This document shows, in pieces, positions 5,293-29,300 of a stretch of DNA of 37,548 bases. Every line of letters begins with the position of its first letter. Positions within the stretch are counted from its first letter, which is position 1. Made by a program: the position numbers and the translations under genes. The notes beneath the pieces are model-generated. The model worked only from the letters and a program-made list of their open reading frames with translations. It was not told where the DNA came from and did no database searches. Origin of the DNA: Firmicutes bacterium HGW-Firmicutes-12 (GTDB taxonomy: Bacteria; Bacillota; Peptococcia; DRI-13; PHAD01). The stretch is from contig PHAD01000013.1 of assembly GCA_002841595.1 (NCBI GenBank), positions 1 through 37,548 on the forward strand, in the 5' to 3' direction.

Positions 5293-5322
5293 ATTATATA
5301 TATAAGAAGTATATACAGTCAA
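5293..5322 (-). promoter_or_regulatory. Sigma-A-type promoter of ndoAI-ndoA
   Basis: On the minus strand, TTGACT (5322-5317) and TATAAT (5298-5293) are 18 bases apart, in the gap between the alr stop and the ndoAI start. The -10 box is perfect and the -35 has one mismatch. The leader would be about 90 bases. Confidence 0.75.
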
Positions 5323-19509: not shown

Positions 19510-20574
19510 CTATTTAATTTGTTCTGCTATAGCTTTACCCATCTCGCGAGTACCAACTAAACCCAACCCTTTGGTCCATATATCCGCCGTTCTCAAACCA
19601 GCTATAAGCACATTTTCAACGGCTTTTTCTACATCTTCAGCCGCCTGGCGATGATTGAATGATATGTCAAGCATCATCGCTACTGAAAGAATAGCTGCTA
19701 AGGGATTGGCCTTATTCTGGCCGGCAATGTCTGGAGCCGAACCATGAATCGGTTCGTACAGGGCAATGCCCTCCCCAATACTTGCTGAAGGTAGCATGCC
19801 AAGTGACGCACCGAGAACTGACGCTTGGTCAGAAAGAATATCTCCAAACATGTTTTCAGTAACAATAATATCAAACTGCGCTGGATTGAGACATAACTGC
19901 ATAGCACAGTTATCAACATATAGATGGTTAAGGGTTATTTTCGGGTAATTTAAGGCCTCTTCCTCTGCAATTTTGCGCCACAAACGCGATGTTTCCAGAA
20001 CATTGGCTTTGTCAACAGAGGTGATTCTATTTCTTCTTGTACCTGCAATATCCATAGCCTTTTTTATTATCCGGCGTATTTGCATGTCGTTATATTCAAT
20101 TGTATCAAAGGCAGCTGTACTCTCACCCTCATGGCTAGTGCCCTTTTTACCAAAATAGGCTCCACCAATCAGCTCCCGCACTATCAGGATATCTACACCT
20201 TCGACAACATGATTCTTAAACGGGGATTGCTCCAAAAGCTGGGGCCAACACTTTACAGGCCTAAGATTAGCGAATAGATCCGATCCTTTGCGCAACTCGA
20301 GCAAGCCTTTTTCCGGCCTTATATCTGATGGTAATGCATCCCACTTAGGACCACCAACTGATCCCAATATGATGACATCACTAGCTTGAACCTTCTTTAG
20401 TGTTTCTTGCGGCAAAGGCTTACCGGTAGCATCTATAGCTTGCCCGCCAATCATACCCTCACTGATGGTGTATTCCAGGGAATATTTGCTTTTTACAGCA
20501 TCTAGCACAATCATTGCCTGTTCTACAACCTCCGGTCCGACACCGTCACCCGGTAAGAGCAATATCTCAATCAC
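19510..20574 (-). CDS. leuB: 3-isopropylmalate dehydrogenase
   Basis: A 354-residue NAD-dependent decarboxylating dehydrogenase, the third leucine-specific step, which produces 2-oxoisocaproate. Family motifs are clear: LPGDGVGPEV near the start, the RELIGGAYFG block with the active-site Tyr, LYVDNCAMQL, and NMFGDILSDQASV with the metal-binding Asp residues. The GTG at 20572-20574 lies within the leuD 3' end (8-base overlap, GGTGATTGA), so it is translationally coupled. It is the last gene of the operon, before the terminator at 19421-19466. Confidence 0.98.
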   Translation of the reverse strand: MIEILLLPGDGVGPEVVEQAMIVLDAVKSKYSLEYTISEGMIGGQAIDATGKPLPQETLKKVQASDVIILGSVGGPKWDALPSDIRPEKGLLELRKGSDLFANLRPVKCWPQLLEQSPFKNHVVEGVDILIVRELIGGAYFGKKGTSHEGESTAAFDTIEYNDMQIRRIIKKAMDIAGTRRNRITSVDKANVLETSRLWRKIAEEEALNYPKITLNHLYVDNCAMQLCLNPAQFDIIVTENMFGDILSDQASVLGASLGMLPSASIGEGIALYEPIHGSAPDIAGQNKANPLAAILSVAMMLDISFNHRQAAEDVEKAVENVLIAGLRTADIWTKGLGLVGTREMGKAIAEQIK

Positions 20575-21070
20575 CTTTTTTCACCTTCTCTGCTACATGT
20601 GGGATCAACCCTCCGCTAAGCAATATTTCTAAAATAAACGGTGGAAAAGGTTCTCCCTTGTATTGCTCTGAAGTAGTATGATTAATAATCGTTCCTTCTC
20701 TAGGATCAACTTCGAGTTTATCTCCCTCTTTTATCGCACGACAAGCCTCCGGCGCTACAATGATAGGAAGTCCAATATTAATGGCATTACGATAAAAGAT
20801 ACGTGCATAGCTTTCAGCAAGCACGCAGCTAAAACCAGCGTATTTTATCGCGATCGGGGCATGTTCCCTGGAACTACCGCATCCGAAGTTCCTACCTGCG
20901 ACAAGAATATCCCCAGGATTTACTTTCTCATCGAGCTGTGGAATGAGGTCTTCCAAACAATGCGAAGCAAGATACTCCGGTTCGGAGCTATTTAGGTAAC
21001 GAGCAGCTATAATGAGATCTGTGTCAATATCATCGCCTAACTTAAAGACTCGACCTTTTAGAATCTGCAT
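20567..21070 (-). CDS. leuD: 3-isopropylmalate dehydratase small subunit
   Basis: A 167-residue swivel domain of isopropylmalate isomerase, partner of LeuC. GDDIDTDLI (12-20) and NFGCGSSREH (61-70) are the characteristic blocks. It is the short form paired with the 420-residue LeuC, as in archaea and many Clostridia. The ATG at 21068-21070 abuts the leuC stop (TAAATG) with AGGAGG 8 bases upstream, and the gene overlaps leuB. The complex isomerises 2- to 3-isopropylmalate in the cytoplasm. Confidence 0.97.
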   Translation of the reverse strand: MQILKGRVFKLGDDIDTDLIIAARYLNSSEPEYLASHCLEDLIPQLDEKVNPGDILVAGRNFGCGSSREHAPIAIKYAGFSCVLAESYARIFYRNAINIGLPIIVAPEACRAIKEGDKLEVDPREGTIINHTTSEQYKGEPFPPFILEILLSGGLIPHVAEKVKKGD

Positions 21071-22336
21071 TTATAAAACCTCCTCAGGTGAAGCAATACG
21101 TCCTAGGACGGCCGATGCGGCAGCAATTGCAGGATTAGATAGGTATACTTCACTTTCGGGATGTCCCATCCTACCTACAAAATTCCTATTCGTAGTCGAT
21201 ACAGCACGTTCGCCTTTAGCTAAAATCCCCATATAACCACCTAAGCATGGACCACAGGTAGGAGTACTGACAACAGCTCCTGCTTCAACAAATATTTGTA
21301 CTAATCCTGCGTTTACTGCCTGCATATATATCTGTTGAGTGCCTGGAATAACAATAGCCCTCAAATCAGGATGCACTTTTTTACCCTTCATGATTTGGGC
21401 TGCTATCTGTAAATCCTCAAACCTTCCATTAGTACACGATCCTATAACAACCTGATCAATCTTAACATGAGTGCTGTCCGCTACTGACCTGGTATTTGAT
21501 GGTAGGTGAGGAAAGGCAACCTGTGGTTCTAAATCAGTAACATCTATCTCTATTACTTCACTATATTTTGCATCAGCATCACTTTCATAGACTTTCCATG
21601 GTTTTTTGGCCCTGTCTTTGACATATTCAATAGTTTTGTCATCCGGTGCGATTAACCCTGCTTTCGCCCCTGCTTCAATGGCCATATTCGCCATAGTCAA
21701 ACGCCCATCAACAGAAAGATTGGTAACAGCTTCGCCCGTAAACTCCATTGCTTTATACTGAGCTCCATCAACACCTATTTTTCCTATGATCGCCAAAATA
21801 TAGTCTTTTCCACTTACCCATTTATTCTTTGGTTTACCAGTAAGAACAAATTTAATGCTTTCTGGTACTCTAAACCATATTTCACCCATGGCCATTCCTA
21901 CAGCCAAGTCAGTGCTTCCTACGCCGGTAGAAAAAGCTCCCAACCCGCCATATGTACAGGTATGTGAGTCTGCCCCTATTACCAAGTCACCAGGTACAAC
22001 TAATCCTTGCTCCGGCAAAAAGCAGTGCTCTATACCGTTTCTTCCAACCTCATAATAATGGGCTAAATCTTGTTCTCTCGAAAACTCCTTGATGTCTCTG
22101 CACTGCTCTGCTGACTTTATATCCTTAGCGGGTGCAAAATGATCTGGTATTAACACGACCTTGTTCTTATCAAAGACCAAATCTAAACCTATTTTTCGAA
22201 ATTCCTTTATGGCTAGCGGACCGGTGATATCATTTGCCAAAACTAAATCAAGCTTAGCATTGATAAGCTCTCCTGGGGTAACCTTTGAAAGCCCGGCATG
22301 GGCCGCCAGGATTTTCTCGGCGATGGTCATTCCCAT
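21071..22336 (-). CDS. leuC: 3-isopropylmalate dehydratase large subunit
   Basis: A 421-residue aconitase-family catalytic subunit carrying the 4Fe-4S cluster. The cluster cysteines are Cys301 (GSCTNGR), Cys361 and Cys364 ([10 protein letters not shown]). [11 protein letters not shown] (121-131) is also typical. Its length marks the shorter 3-isopropylmalate/homoaconitate group rather than the 466-residue enterobacterial LeuC. Leucine context makes isopropylmalate the sensible substrate, although related enzymes handle homoaconitate or citramalate derivatives. ATG at 22334-22336 with GGGAGG 9 bases upstream. The cluster is oxygen-sensitive, which suits an anaerobe. Confidence 0.96.
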
Positions 22337-22350
22337 AAATATCTTCCTCC

Positions 22351-23904
22351 CTATTCACTGACAACTGACACGTTTTTGAGGTCTGGATAAACCTTTATTA
22401 TTTTGTTAAGTGCATTTATATAAGCTCGGGCGCTAGCTTCGATAATATCTACGCTTAAGCCTCTTCCCATAAAGGTATTGCTACCCATACTTACACTTAC
22501 AACAACTTCGCCTTGTGCATCCGTTCCACCGGTAACAGCACTTATGCTATATGTTTCCAGTCTTACAGGAAGCTTAGTCATCTTATTTATGGCGCTGTAT
22601 GCAGCCTCAACAGGTCCATCGGCACAGGCTGCTTCTTCTAATAGTTTCCCGTTCATTCTTAGGCCTACCGTCGAGGTTGCAGCAATATTCGTTCCACTTG
22701 ATACCTGAAGATATTCTAAATGATAGTATTCTTCACTACTACCTAGAATCTGGCTATCCATCAGTATAATTAAATCTTCATCTAATATCTCTTTTTTACG
22801 ATCTGCAAGTTGTTTGAATTCAAAAAATGCTTTTTCTAAGGTTTCCCCTTCAAGGTTATATCCCAGACTTTTCAACTGCAATTTGAAGGCATGGCGTCCC
22901 GAGAGTTTACCCAACACCAGCTTCTTGCTAGTAATCCCTAACATCTCCGGATTCATGATTTCGTAGGTTTCCCGCTCTTTGATAACACCATCTTGATGTA
23001 TTCCTGATTCATGTGCAAATGCGTTCTTACCTACAATAGCCTTGTTGGGTTGTATCTGCATTCCTGTAAGTGTACTAGTCATACGACTAGTTCTATATAT
23101 CTCACGTATGTTAATATTTGTAGTGAAGCCCAAATAATTTCTTCTAGTATATAGGGCCATAACTACCTCTTCGAGAGAAGCATTACCGGCACGTTCACCA
23201 ATCCCGTTAACCGCGACCTCTACCTGTTGTGCTCCATTTCGTATGGCAGCCAGAGAATTAGCAACAGCTAATCCTAAATCATTATGACAATGGACACTGA
23301 TAATAGTCTTATCTATGTTTGGTACTCCCAAGCGGACGGCTTTAACAAATTCTCCAAACTCCCAAGGAGTAGCATAACCAACAGTATCAGGAATGTTAAT
23401 AACGGTAGCTCCTGCTTGAATTGCTATATCAAATACTTCACATAAAAAATCTAAATCACTGCGAAAAGCATCTTCAGCAGAAAACTCGACATCTTCTACT
23501 AAGCTTTTTGCTAGCTTAACACCCTCATAGGCCATCTCTTTGACTTGTTCGGTTGTCTTACAAAGTTTATGAGACATGTGTATCTGAGAAGTAGCTACAA
23601 ACGTGTGTATCCTAGGGCGATTGGCTCCTTTTACCGCCTCGTATGCTCTCTTGATATCAGCAGTTTCTGTTCGGGAAAGACCGCAGATAATAGGTCCTGT
23701 TACCTCTTTGGCTATTCGACTTACTGCGTTAAAATCACCCTCTGAGGCAATCGGAAAGCCTGCTTCAATAACATCTACACCCAAGCGTGCCAACTGCTGG
23801 GCAATAGCCAATTTTTCTTCAATATTTAAACTCACTCCTGGCGACTGCTCACCATCACGCAAGGTTGTATCAAAAATATAAACCCTTTTGTCATCTCCTG
23901 ACAC
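22351..23904 (-). CDS. leuA: 2-isopropylmalate synthase
   Basis: A 517-residue enzyme that condenses 2-oxoisovalerate with acetyl-CoA, the committed leucine step. The HMGL-like TIM barrel holds [10 protein letters not shown] (11-20; Arg16, Asp17) and [12 protein letters not shown] (203-214; His205 and His207 bind the metal), then [13 protein letters not shown]. The C-terminal dimer domain (about 390-517) is complete, so leucine feedback inhibition is expected. The start is a GTG at 23902-23904 with GGAGGG 10 bases upstream. It lies 16 bases after the second ilvB and 14 bases before leuC. Confidence 0.97.
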
Positions 23905-23920
23905 CGTTTTAATACCCTCC

Positions 23921-25612
23921 TTATTCCACTCCGGCTAACTGATCCAAACCACAACCAGCTAAAACCATGGGATAAACATTTTCTTTGCTGGAAGTAATTA
24001 CCTCTAAGACTACCATCCCTTTATGATTGATGAACTCTTTCATTTTCTCTTTAAGTTCATCTTTCTTCTGTACTTTTAAACTAAGGGCATTATAGGCAAG
24101 CGCCAGATAATGAAAATCTGGGTTCTTTTGAAAATGAACAGCAACATGTCTACCTTCACAGTAATGATCCTGTAATTGTTTAACCATGCCCAAGCTTTGG
24201 TTATTAAGTAAGAGAATTTTTAAAGGCAGGTCATTCTCCATTGCGGTGCCTAATTCCCCCATACCCATTTGGAAACTGCCATCGCCTGTTATTGCAACTA
24301 CGGTACAATCAGGACAAGCTACCTGAGCACCAACAGCTGCCGGTATCCCGTATCCCATCGTACCTAGGCCTCCTGAACTAATAAAAGTCCGTGGTTTCCT
24401 AGCGTCATACATCTGAGCTGCCCATATTTGATGCTGCCCAACGTCGGTAGTAACAATGGCTTTTGTAGGAAGGTATTGATTTAAAAGGACCATTACATCC
24501 CTTGGTGAAACACAGTCCTCCCCTTCACATTCAGGGTTCATTTCTTTTAAGACACAACAACGCTCTACTATTTTTTCAATTTCAGCCACCCAATCAGGGT
24601 TTTCTTTTTTATGCAAACGCTGATTTAACTGGTTTAGAACGATTTTAACGTCTCCAACCAAGGGTATATCAGCTCTAACATTTTTGCCAATTTCTGCGGT
24701 ATCTATGTCTATATGAATAATACTTGCATTAGGGGCAAACTTATTTACATTACCCGTAACTCTATCGGTAAAGCGAGTCCCCAACGCAATAAATAAATCA
24801 CAAGCTTGCACAGCTAAATTCGCTTTGGCTACACCATAGGTACCCAGCATTCCTAGAGCAAGAGGATGGGCGAGAGGAATGCTACCTATGCCATTTAAGG
24901 TGTTAACCACCGGTATTTGTAAGGTTTCGGCCAATTCTATAAGCTCTTTTGAAGCATCAGCTGATATTACTCCCCCACCCGCGCAAATAAGGGGTTTTTG
25001 AGCTTTCTGAAGTACTTCACTGATTTGTTTAATCTGTCCGGCATGTCCGGTAACCTTGGGTTTATAGCTACGTAGATCTATATTTAAGTTCTCATCCGCA
25101 GTATAATCCATTTGGGTCATCATGACATCCCTAGGCAAATCAACTATAACAGGTCCTGGGCGACCACTACTGGCTATATAAAAAGCCTCTTTAATAACGT
25201 GCGGCAAGTCCGCAATGTTTTTAACTAAATAGTTGTGCTTGGAAATAGGATCTGTTATCCCAGTTATATCTACTTCTTGAAAAGCATCTGTTCCTATCAT
25301 GCTCTGAGACACTTGTGCTGTAATGGCAATCATAGGAACAGAATCCATATACGCGGTGGCAATACCTGTCACCAAATTAGTTGCTCCGGGTCCTGAAGTG
25401 GCCAAGCAAACCCCGACTTTGCCACTCGCCCTGGCATAACTATTGGCAGCATGAGCCGCTCCTTGTTCATGCCGGACCAATATATGCCTGATTTGAGTGG
25501 AATCATTTAGGGAATCAAAGATTTCTAGGGTTGCTCCTCCCGGATAACCGAAGATTATTTCCACATCTTCTTTTTCCAGACATTTAATTAATATCTCAGC
25601 ACCCGGCAACAT
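23921..25612 (-). CDS. ilvB: Acetolactate synthase catalytic subunit, second copy (Leu at the substrate-specificity position)
   Basis: A 563-residue thiamine-diphosphate enzyme with all three domains. It has the catalytic Glu in [15 protein letters not shown], the FAD-class signature RFTDRVTG, which separates AHAS from catabolic acetolactate synthase, and the ThDP/Mg motif GDGSFQMG...LLLNN. In the MVxQWQ block, where biosynthetic enzymes carry a Trp that favours 2-ketobutyrate, this copy reads MVKQLQD with Leu480 (codon 24173-24175). By analogy with the Trp-to-Leu mutant of E. coli AHAS II it should prefer pyruvate, making acetolactate for valine and leucine. ATG at 25610-25612 with GGAGGTG. 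It lies between ilvC and leuA and has no small subunit of its own; the upstream ilvN may serve both copies. Confidence 0.95.
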
Positions 25613-25636
25613 ATTAACACCTCCAAAGGAATGTTG

Positions 25637-26650
<1,014 letters not shown>

Positions 26651-26658
26651 TTAAGTAA

Positions 26659-27138
26659 TTACTTTGTACCCCTAACCATTGCCACCTTACCGGTACGTAC
26701 TAATTCTTGGATACCGAAAGGTCTAAGTGATCTAATAATAGCCTCGATTTTTTCTTCGTCACCAGTTGCCTCGACGATTAGTGAACGCTTACCTATATCT
26801 ACAATACGGCAGCGAAAAATCTCAACTATCTGCATAATTTCCATACGAATAGCTGTATCAGCAGCTACTTTTAATAATAGGAGCTGTCTTTCCACAATTT
26901 TCTCATTTGTAATATCATTTACTTTTATTACTTCTACCTGTTTATTAAGCTGTTTACTAACCTGTTCAATGACTTTTTCATCACCTTCTACCACCAGGGT
27001 AATTCTAGATATACCTGGATCCTCCGTCTCACCAACAACAAGGCTATCAATGTTATACCCGCGTCGAGAGAAAAGTCCAGCTACATGGGATAATACACCT
27101 GGTTGGTTTTCAACCAATACGGCTAATGTGTGTCTCAC
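26659..27138 (-). CDS. ilvN: Acetolactate synthase regulatory subunit
   Basis: A 159-residue small subunit with an N-terminal ACT domain (about 3-75) and the C-terminal IlvH-type domain. It activates the catalytic subunit and confers valine feedback. Asn11, Gly14 and Asn29 (VENQPG, RRGYNIDS) match the valine-site residues of E. coli IlvH in both identity and number, so feedback sensitivity is expected. The start is a GTG at 27136-27138 with GGAGG 7 bases upstream, inside the 3' end of the first ilvB (29-base overlap), so translation is coupled. Confidence 0.97.
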   Translation of the reverse strand: MRHTLAVLVENQPGVLSHVAGLFSRRGYNIDSLVVGETEDPGISRITLVVEGDEKVIEQVSKQLNKQVEVIKVNDITNEKIVERQLLLLKVAADTAIRMEIMQIVEIFRCRIVDIGKRSLIVEATGDEEKIEAIIRSLRPFGIQELVRTGKVAMVRGTK

Positions 27139-28819
27139 CTTGCCACCTCCCTAGCATTTCATGAGGCCCGCCACCCGGAGGGATAATCGGGAAAACATTT
27201 TCTGACTGATCCACAATACATTCGATCAGCACCGGTCCCTCAGTATTAAGGGCCTGGACAATAATCCCCTTTGCTTCTTCAGGTTCGGAAATTCTTAGGG
27301 CTGTTATTCCATATGCTTCAGCCAATCGTATAAAGTCTGGATTATACGTAAATATAGTTTGTGCATAATGCTCTTTAAAAAATAACTCCTGCCATTGACG
27401 AACCATACCTAAACAAGAATTATTTAGAACGAATATCTTAATCGGCAGATTATTTTGCGCAATAGTTGCTAATTCTTGAATATTCATCTGAATACTGCCA
27501 TCACCTGAAAATAAAAGTATATTCTCTTTTGGTCGCCCAAAAGCAGCCCCTATCGCCGCAGGCAGGCCAAAGCCCATTGTCCCCAGTCCACCAGAAGTCA
27601 CAAAGTTACGGATACCTCCTAAGGGAAAGAACTGTGCAACAAACATTTGATGCTGTCCTACATCGGTAACCACCACAGCTTTTTCACCTGCTATACGGGC
27701 AGTTTCTTCTATAACATACTGAGGTTTTAATGTTTTTTCTTTATCGTATAAAAGAGGATACTTTTTCTCAAACTCATTAATCTGACTTAGCCACTCATCT
27801 AATTGGAATGTCTGTTTCTCCTTCTTGAAGCCCGTCATTATTGCGGTGAGAAATCTCCCAGCATCACAAACCACTGGAATTTCAGTATTAACGTTCTTAC
27901 ATAACTCAGCCGGGTCAATATCTACATGCACAATAGTTGTATCAAAAAGGAAGTTCTCCGGCTTCCCTGTTACTCTATCACTAAAACGAACTCCAATCGC
28001 CAATAAAAGATCGCATGAATTAAGCGCTAAGTTAGCTGCAGGTATTCCGTGCATCCCCACCATACCTAAAACATTTGTGTTCTTGTCTGGAATTGCCCCT
28101 TTGCCCATCAGTGTAGTAACTACCGGCATGCCTGTATATTTCACAAACTCCTCTAACTGTTCCCACGCACGGCTGGCAATTATACCACCACCTAACATTA
28201 ATAGCGGTTTTTTGGCCATTTTTATCGCTTCTAGTACCTTACTTATTTGTTCCTCTAAGCCATTTTTTCGAGGACCCTTTCGCGTTGTGATATTATGGGT
28301 TGTTGCAGAAAAATCAACAGTACCAGAAAAAATATCACTAGGAATATCCACCAAAACTGGCCCGGGACGACCAGTGGTTGCTACATTCCAGGCCTCTTCC
28401 AACACAGCCGGTAGCAGTTCAATGTCCTTTACCATGTAACTATGCTTAGTTATCGGCATTGTTATACCCATGATATCGGCCTCCTGAAAAGAGTCTCTAC
28501 CTATATCTGCCAAGCCAACCTGACCTGTAATGGCTATAAGTGGAACAGAATCCAAATATGCATTGGCTATACCTGTAACCAAGTTTGTAGCTCCTGGTCC
28601 CGAAGTAGCAAAGCATACTCCGGGCTTACCGGTTACACGAGCATAACCATCAGCCGCATGTACTGCACCCTGTTCATGTCTTGCTAGCACATGTTTAAGT
28701 GTGGATTTTCCCAATACATCATATAGAAATATAACTTTGCCACCTGGGTAGCCAAAAATATACTCCACGCCCTTATTTTCAAAAAACTTAATTAAATATT
28801 GAGCCCCATTCAATTTCAC
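27110..28819 (-). CDS. ilvB: Acetolactate synthase catalytic subunit, first copy (canonical Trp)
   Basis: A 569-residue AHAS catalytic subunit, first gene of the operon. Motifs are the FGYPGG block, RHEQGAVHAADGYAR with the catalytic Glu, RFSDRVTG (FAD-dependent AHAS class) and GDGSIQMN...FVLNN for ThDP/Mg. It keeps the Trp in GMVRQWQELFF (codon 27392-27394), which in E. coli AHAS II gives preference for 2-ketobutyrate and is a classic herbicide-resistance position. A short tail after the family end overlaps ilvN. I choose the GTG at 28817-28819 after GGAGG; a TTG two codons later has longer spacing, and a TTG at 28834 lies upstream of the site. It pairs directly with the overlapping ilvN. 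Confidence 0.96.
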   Translation of the reverse strand: MKLNGAQYLIKFFENKGVEYIFGYPGGKVIFLYDVLGKSTLKHVLARHEQGAVHAADGYARVTGKPGVCFATSGPGATNLVTGIANAYLDSVPLIAITGQVGLADIGRDSFQEADIMGITMPITKHSYMVKDIELLPAVLEEAWNVATTGRPGPVLVDIPSDIFSGTVDFSATTHNITTRKGPRKNGLEEQISKVLEAIKMAKKPLLMLGGGIIASRAWEQLEEFVKYTGMPVVTTLMGKGAIPDKNTNVLGMVGMHGIPAANLALNSCDLLLAIGVRFSDRVTGKPENFLFDTTIVHVDIDPAELCKNVNTEIPVVCDAGRFLTAIMTGFKKEKQTFQLDEWLSQINEFEKKYPLLYDKEKTLKPQYVIEETARIAGEKAVVVTDVGQHQMFVAQFFPLGGIRNFVTSGGLGTMGFGLPAAIGAAFGRPKENILLFSGDGSIQMNIQELATIAQNNLPIKIFVLNNSCLGMVRQWQELFFKEHYAQTIFTYNPDFIRLAEAYGITALRISEPEEAKGIIVQALNTEGPVLIECIVDQSENVFPIIPPGGGPHEMLGRWQGETHISRIG

Positions 28820-28894
28820 AACACCTCCGGACAATTGTACAAGAGTTAAGTAATTAGCTAGTTTAAAATAGGTTGGGTAACCTCATTGTATCTT

Positions 28895-28956
28895 GGATAT
28901 ATTGTAATATGATATCCTTGGTCAATAAAGATGTCAACAAGCAACAGCGCTTGCTT
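28895..28956. repeat. Two inverted repeats flanking and overlapping the proximal ilv promoter
   Basis: AAGCAA (28939-28944) and TTGCTT (28951-28956) form a perfect 6-6-6 interrupted palindrome directly upstream of the -35 box. GGATAT (28895-28900) and ATATCC (28912-28917) form a second one covering the -10 box and start region. Both are placed like operators. The owner is unknown; neither resembles a CodY box. Confidence 0.4.
28909..28937 (-). promoter_or_regulatory. Second (proximal) ilv-leu promoter, after the T-box terminator
   Basis: On the minus strand, TTGACA (28937-28932) and TATCAT (28914-28909) are 17 bases apart: a perfect -35 and a one-mismatch -10 at ideal spacing. It lies about 55 bases beyond the T-box terminator and about 85 bases before the ilvB start, so transcripts from here would bypass T-box control. 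Confidence 0.65.
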
Positions 28957-28992
28957 CTATCTATTATATATCTAAAACATCGTATAAATAAT

Positions 28993-29039
28993 AAAAACCC
29001 CTCGTCCATAACAGCTTAAATGCTGTCAGGGACGAGAGG
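28993..29039 (-). terminator. T-box regulated intrinsic terminator
   Basis: On the minus strand, CCTCTCGTCC (29039-29030) pairs with GGACGAGGGG (29007-28998). An inner ACAGC/GCTGT stem and a TTTTTATT tail complete it. The 5' arm also contains TCTCG and CCCT, which can pair with CGAGA and AGGG of the T-box to form the competing antiterminator. Confidence 0.93.
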
Positions 29040-29264
29040 AATATCTCGCGGTACCACCCTGCTTACCTTATATACTAGGTCACCTCTTTTAGTATTAACG
29101 GCTACCACCGGTTTACCCTACAATAATCAGGCAAACAGCTCCAAGACGACTCTTCTATATCAAACATACCGTTTCCCACCATTCCCGGCTCTCTGAAAAT
29201 GTTCAATATTTCCGCTTCTTTTCATTGCTTCTATATATATTAATTTATTATTGATCGAACTTAT
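28993..29264 (-). ncRNA. T-box leader riboswitch of the ilv-leu operon
   Basis: The minus strand carries AGGGTGGTACCGCG at 29060-29047, the conserved T-box/antiterminator sequence, followed by the terminator. Upstream are AGAGAG (Stem I, about 29193-29188), CTTGGAGC closing the specifier region (29145-29138), and a stem III-like GTAGG...CCGTTA segment. Uncharged tRNA binding would stabilise the antiterminator and let transcription into ilvB. By aligning to the usual 'specifier, three bases, TTGG' layout, GTC (Val) at 29150-29148 is my best specifier candidate, but I could not fold Stem I with certainty and Leu or Ile remain possible. The 5' end is estimated from the promoter at 29271-29300. 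Confidence 0.95.
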
Positions 29265-29270
29265 TAATTA

Positions 29271-29300
29271 AGTATAGTTGGAACTGACTGTAGTTGTCAA
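29271..29300 (-). promoter_or_regulatory. Distal ilv-leu promoter driving the T-box leader
   Basis: On the minus strand, TTGACA (29300-29295), 18 bases, TATACT (29276-29271). It is placed correctly for the T-box leader and lies between the stop of the LUD gene at 29328 and the leader. Confidence 0.8.

What the first reader, a model, noticed from the sequence alone, without database searches (positions are those of the whole stretch)
28895..29300. Bypass promoter downstream of the T-box terminator
The leader has a good sigma-A promoter (TTGACA-18-TATACT) feeding a T-box. About 55 bases beyond the T-box terminator lies an even better-spaced promoter (TTGACA-17-TATCAT) pointing into ilvB. Transcripts from it would not sense tRNA charging at all, giving the operon basal or separately regulated expression.
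Basis: seen in the sequence. Interest (0 to 1): 0.6.

Follow-up and report, generated by a model that had tools for sequence, protein, structure and literature searches.

The report
Conserved second promoter behind a T-box
The genes for making leucine, isoleucine and valine in this bacterium have two promoters, one feeding a tRNA-sensing RNA switch and one just beyond it that skips the switch; the second appears conserved in related bacteria, where it often feeds a different RNA switch that is gone here.

Summary
On the minus strand the order is P1 (TTGACA-18-TATACT), a complete T-box (108 bits), a strong terminator, then 55 nt further on P2 (TTGACA-17-TATCAT, 11/12), 89 nt before ilvB. A site this good arises in about 1.3% of shuffles of the gap. 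P2 also looks conserved: a profile built only from the matching promoters of four other families finds it as the single best site in the window (E = 0.0016; next 1.8).

In relatives P2's counterpart is the promoter next to ilvD-ilvB. In two families it precedes a ykkC-type, probably ppGpp, riboswitch; in three an opposite-strand selenoprotein gene separates it from the T-box. In the window lineage that gene, the riboswitch and the operon's ilvD are absent, so T-box and bare P2 lie side by side. The window T-box carries a Val specifier (GUC); all 12 aligned relatives carry Leu (CUC).

Best reading: parallel inputs, (P1 and uncharged tRNA-Val) or P2, with P2 the older gene-proximal promoter rather than an add-on. 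P2 activity is inferred; there are no transcript data. What regulates P2 is unknown: no CodY box or significant operator was found. T-boxes, dual promoters and T-box/ppGpp tandems are known, so interest is moderate.

The parts
29271..29300 (-). P1, sigma-A-type promoter TTGACA-18-TATACT feeding the T-box
   Evidence: the same hexamers at the same place in the aligned relatives (L122 has TATAAT) and in G005
29025..29234 (-). T-box leader (RF00230)
   Evidence: 108.1 bits, E 3.7e-23, full-length model match
29148..29150 (-). Specifier triplet GUC (Val); CUC (Leu) in all 12 aligned relatives
   Evidence: Rfam alignment and MAFFT alignment of 13 leaders
28993..29039 (-). Intrinsic terminator of the T-box with T run 28997-28993
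   Evidence: -30.2 kcal/mol, z -7.6, 0 of 200 shuffles as stable
28909..28937 (-). P2, sigma-A-type promoter TTGACA-17-TATCAT, 55 nt after the T run; expected start about 28902
   Evidence: profile of four other families hits 28939-28879 at E 0.0016; pairwise tests
28814..28902 (-). Expected leader of the P2 transcript, no stable structure, ribosome-binding site GGAGG at 28828-28824
   Evidence: fold no better than shuffles (z +1.0); no ykkC/ppGpp aptamer in an unfiltered model scan
27110..28813 (-). ilvB, acetolactate synthase large subunit (start TTG 28813 by comparison with relatives)
   Evidence: TIGR00118 740.5 bits; conserved start and ribosome-binding site with G001
19510..27138 (-). 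Rest of the operon: ilvN, ilvC, second ilvB, leuA, leuC, leuD, leuB; ilvD is not among them
   Evidence: NCBIfam matches; ilvD lies at G000:C59:13404-15029

Best explanation
The ilv-leu operon is fed by two sigma-A promoters acting in parallel. P1 transcripts enter the T-box and reach ilvB only when uncharged tRNA (probably tRNA-Val in this organism) prevents termination. P2 transcripts start beyond the terminator and reach ilvB regardless of tRNA charging, giving basal or separately regulated expression. P2 descends from the promoter that sits directly upstream of ilvD-ilvB in related families, in some of them ahead of a ppGpp-type riboswitch. In this lineage the opposite-strand selenoprotein gene that stands between T-box and P2 in relatives is absent, and so are the riboswitch and the operon copy of ilvD between P2 and ilvB (the genome's ilvD is a distant copy elsewhere), leaving P2 without an RNA switch. 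Shown by sequence: both promoter matches, T-box, terminator, gene order in relatives, absence of the riboswitch near the operon, similarity of P2 to its counterparts. Inferred: that P2 is active, its independence of tRNA charging in vivo, the order of losses, and the Val specificity.
For: P2 matches 11/12 with optimal spacing and is unlikely by chance in the gap (P = 0.013). A profile from families f2, f3, f5, f6 alone finds P2 as the top site in the window, E 0.0016 against 1.8 for the next, and P1 is not found. Outside the hexamers P2 resembles the f5 counterpart (p 0.0055; GACCAAG shared), f6 (p 0.024), f2 (p 0.044), f3 (p 0.051); the P1 controls are at p 0.29-0.88. The f2, f3, f5, f6 counterparts resemble one another at p up to 0.014. 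They lie upstream of ilvD (f2, f3, f5) or ilvB (f6), in f2 and f6 ahead of a ykkC-type aptamer. The -10 TATCAT is shared by window, f2, f3 and f6, though it is only about 5% of the TTGACA/TATNAT sites listed for G000-G002. No terminator between P2 and ilvB. ilvD of the genome is only 54-57% identical to the relatives' operon copies, which are about 69-78% identical between families.
Against: No transcript data. The 186-nt segment has no blastn relative at E below 0.001 in 60 relatives, so similarity is limited to the promoter block and its support is moderate (E 0.0016 includes the hexamers and a composition bias of 6.5 bits; the pairwise p values are correlated and not corrected for several comparisons). 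The nearest relative, G001, has no clear P2. Compact f8 genomes run the T-box straight into ilvB without a P2, so a second promoter is dispensable. Read-through from P1 could occlude P2.
Confidence: 0.72

Rival explanations
1. P2 is a non-functional remnant: the promoter of a lost riboswitch-ilvD unit, decaying since the deletion, and all operon transcription comes from P1 through the T-box.
For: ilvD and the ykkC-type aptamer are absent from the operon, flanking sequence has diverged beyond blastn detection, and f8 relatives do without P2.
Against: Both hexamers and the 17-nt spacing remain near consensus (11/12) while the flanks diverged, which is not what decay gives; the operon would then have little expression whenever tRNA-Val is charged, including when leucine alone is short.
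Confidence: 0.15
2. P2 is a chance match in AT-rich intergenic DNA.
For: Scans of AT-rich leaders give many weaker matches (12 found, 5.2 expected at 9/12), and the exact pattern occurs in the genome about as often as its reversed control.
Against: 11/12 arises in 1.3% of shuffles of the gap; counterparts at the same place in four other families, with the profile hit at E 0.0016.
Confidence: 0.06
3. A refinement of the best explanation rather than an exclusive rival: P2 is a regulated promoter whose repressor or activator (for example CodY), or initiating-nucleotide control in the stringent response, replaces the lost ppGpp riboswitch as the starvation input.
For: CodY is encoded in this genome; the expected +1 is A, and in B. 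subtilis the +1 identity decides the response to amino-acid starvation (Krasny 2008, cited in PMC5912903); an imperfect palindrome overlaps the -10 (28895-28917).
Against: No CodY box better than chance near P2 (one 3-mismatch site at 28774); the palindrome is matched in 197 of 500 shuffles.
Confidence: 0.3

Closest known systems
T-box leaders of ilv/leu operons (RF00230)
   Same: Complete T-box with Stem I, specifier, antiterminator and terminator before ilvB
   Different: Specifier GUC (Val) where the aligned relatives have CUC (Leu); a second promoter follows the terminator
Tandem T box(Leu)/ppGpp riboswitch AND gates (PMC9481103 Table 2; PMC5912903; Sherlock et al. 2018 PNAS, not readable here)
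   Same: G001, of the same family as the window, has T-box then ykkC-type aptamer then ilvD without a strong promoter between
   Different: The window has no aptamer; in f2 the two RNAs are separated by an opposite-strand gene and a promoter, so there they may act independently rather than as an AND gate
Genes with two mapped start sites, e.g. 83 genes in C. difficile (PMC7438776)
   Same: Two promoters for one gene, the second giving a shorter leader
   Different: Here the second promoter specifically bypasses a T-box terminator; I found no such published case in the searchable library

Membership tests
T-box leader (RF00230) | Full-length match above the curated score | tested here: met
   108.1 against 93 bits, positions 1-219
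T-box leader (RF00230) | Specifier triplet at the standard place in Stem I | tested here: met
   GUC, same distance to GAGC as CUC in relatives
T-box leader (RF00230) | Conserved T-box sequence followed by a terminator before an amino-acid gene | tested here: met
   AGGGTGGTACCGCG, terminator -30.2 kcal/mol, ilvB
T-box leader (RF00230) | Binding of, and antitermination by, uncharged cognate tRNA | not testable with these tools
   Needs an in vitro or reporter assay
Sigma-A promoter (P2) | -35/-10 hexamers with 16-18 nt spacing | tested here: met
   TTGACA-17-TATCAT
Sigma-A promoter (P2) | Transcript 5' end a few bases after the -10 | not testable with these tools
   No RNA data available
Sigma-A promoter (P2) | Conserved at the same place in related operons | tested here: met
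   f2, f3, f5, f6; profile E 0.0016; not in G001, weak in f4
T-box/ppGpp tandem | ykkC-type aptamer in the same leader as the T-box | tested here: not met
   No match near the operon with filters off and none found in the genome, 99 of 152 candidates scored

The most novel reading that the evidence does not exclude
In this bacterial order the branched-chain amino-acid operon was built from two separately promoted starvation sensors, a T-box under P1 and a ppGpp-type riboswitch under P2, with a selenoprotein gene on the opposite strand between them. Lineages have since rewired it: fused into a tandem AND gate (G001), reduced to the T-box alone (compact f8 genomes), or, in the window, reduced to a T-box retuned from Leu to Val beside a promoter freed of its riboswitch, changing the logic from two sensed inputs to one sensed input plus a tRNA-independent supply.
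Probability: 0.4. Interest if true: 0.55.

Novelty: new variant of a known kind. Interest (0 to 1): 0.4.

Why it matters
T-box operons are usually described as having one leader and one promoter, and T-box/ppGpp tandems as AND gates. If P2 works, the output of such operons has a tRNA-independent part, and in some relatives the two RNA sensors would add (OR) rather than multiply (AND). The family comparison gives a set of natural rearrangements in which this could be tested directly.

Tried and rejected
An operator at P2: the palindrome GGATATCATATTACAATATATCC and the hairpin AAGCAA/TTGCTT are no better than shuffles. A CodY box: only chance-level sites. A ppGpp or other riboswitch behind P2: none. 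A repeat or mobile-element origin of the P2 segment: no other significant copy in the genome or in 60 relatives. Ungapped comparison of P2 with its counterparts was not significant; gapped comparison and a profile were. P2-like promoters behind the other T-boxes of the genome: none found, but the script read only 9 of 17 loci including this one. Published T-box-bypass promoters: none found in the open library.

Full report
What is in the sequence. Reading the minus strand, P1 (TTGACA-18-TATACT, 29300-29271) is followed by a full T-box (29234-29025, 108.1 bits), a terminator of -30.2 kcal/mol, and 55 nt after its T run by P2 (TTGACA-17-TATCAT, 28937-28909). The ilvB start is TTG 28813, placed by comparison with relatives that start MNG after a similar GGAGGTGTTGT. 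The genes that follow are ilvB, ilvN, ilvC, a second ilvB, leuA, leuC, leuD and leuB.

More than chance? A match of 11/12 arises in 1.3% of shuffles of the 183-nt gap; two such sites in the leader arise in 1 of 3000 shuffles. In 37.5 kb, both strands, there are three: P1, P2 and one at 5322 minus, upstream of a minus-strand ORF. The exact P2 pattern is found twice in the genome, close to the control count, so I did not rest on the match alone.

Relatives. The genome (G000, 189 contigs) has 24 order-level relatives on hand. Operon upstream regions were taken from 20 of them, plus the T-box/ilvD contig of G005. P1 and the T-box align in 13 leaders, and G005 has the same P1. The arrangements follow, with f labels being the family numbers. 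f2 (G002, G009): T-box, opposite-strand selenoprotein gene, a small membrane-protein-like ORF, P2, ykkC-type aptamer, ilvD, ilvB. f3 (G003, G010): T-box, selenoprotein gene, P2, ilvD, ilvB. f4 (G004): T-box, selenoprotein gene, aptamer, ilvD, ilvB, only a weak promoter match. f5 (G005): T-box, selenoprotein gene, P2, ilvD to the contig end; ilvB on another contig. f6 (G006): P2, aptamer, ilvB, no T-box nearby. f1 sister G001: T-box, aptamer, ilvD, ilvB, no clear P2. f8: T-box directly before ilvB (G008, G018, G020), with the selenoprotein gene between (G014, G016), or with repeats between (G012). f7: no T-box match near ilvD in the stretches read, but TTGACA promoters before it. The window has T-box, P2, ilvB.

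The aptamers. The ykkC-type elements of G001, G004 and G006 score 40-41 bits with the guanidine-I model, below its cut-off of 63, as a variant subtype would. Subtype 2a, which senses ppGpp, is the one tied to branched-chain amino-acid genes (PMC5912903; PMC6031431). That these sense ppGpp is an inference from sequence and context. A model built from five of them recovers those five and finds none in G000 (99 of 152 candidates scored) or near the window operon with filters off.

Is P2 the same promoter? Ungapped flanks gave no signal. With gaps allowed and the hexamers left out, P2 resembles f5 (p 0.0055, spacer p 0.003), f6 (0.024), f2 (0.044) and f3 (0.051), while P1 promoters give 0.29-0.88. 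The stricter test is the profile made from f2, f3, f5 and f6 without the window: its best site in the window is 28939-28879 at E 0.0016, and the next E is 1.8. I take common descent of P2 as likely, not proven.

What was lost. The window genome's only ilvD match is on another contig. It is 54-57% identical to the operon copies of relatives, which are about 69-78% identical between families, and no T-box or riboswitch was found before it. It is probably a replacement from elsewhere. No HesB-like selenoprotein gene was found in G000 or G001.

Mechanism. P1 transcripts are conditional on uncharged tRNA; P2 transcripts are not. No terminator or stable structure lies between P2 and ilvB. The result is an OR arrangement: (P1 and uncharged tRNA) or P2. 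The specifier is GUC by both the Rfam alignment and the comparison with CUC leaders, so the tRNA is probably tRNA-Val. This would leave leucine shortage sensed only indirectly, which makes a second, independent promoter more useful; that is inference. What controls P2 is open: CodY is present but no CodY box stands out, and palindromes there are at chance level.

Known or new. T-boxes, dual promoters and T-box/ppGpp tandems are known. A conserved promoter placed to bypass a T-box terminator I did not find described, in a library that lacks most subscription journals.

Noticed in passing
window 29148-29150 (minus): T-box specifier GUC (Val) where all 12 aligned relatives have CUC (Leu): a one-base retuning of the leader.
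   Followed up: partly
L112, L113, L114, L119, L120, L124, L125, L175 (between T-box and ilv genes, opposite strand): HesB/IscA-like gene with an in-frame TGA at a conserved G-x-G-U-G site, a likely selenoprotein; all 8 copies found in the order carry one TGA and all lie next to an ilv T-box. A reading-through T-box transcript would be antisense to it.
   Followed up: partly
G000:C59:13404-15029 (L132): The genome's only ilvD match, 54-57% identical to the relatives' operon copies, away from the operon and without a riboswitch; probably a foreign replacement.
   Followed up: partly
L112 and L119, before ilvD: ykkC-type aptamers of f2 carry a long insert of TAGTTG/CAACTA-like repeats in one arm.
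   Followed up: no
window 28877-28890 and counterparts in L112, L113, L175: A short block like GATAyAATrAG recurs about 20-30 nt after the P2 -10 in window, f2, f3 and f5; meaning unknown.
   Followed up: no
L122 (G012), between T-box and ilvB: Several copies of a roughly 100-nt repeat (TTATCCGAATAGCTAACCGTCGCTAA...) fill the gap.
   Followed up: no
G000:C77 (L155): Two T-box cores about 120 nt apart, possibly a tandem T-box.
   Followed up: no
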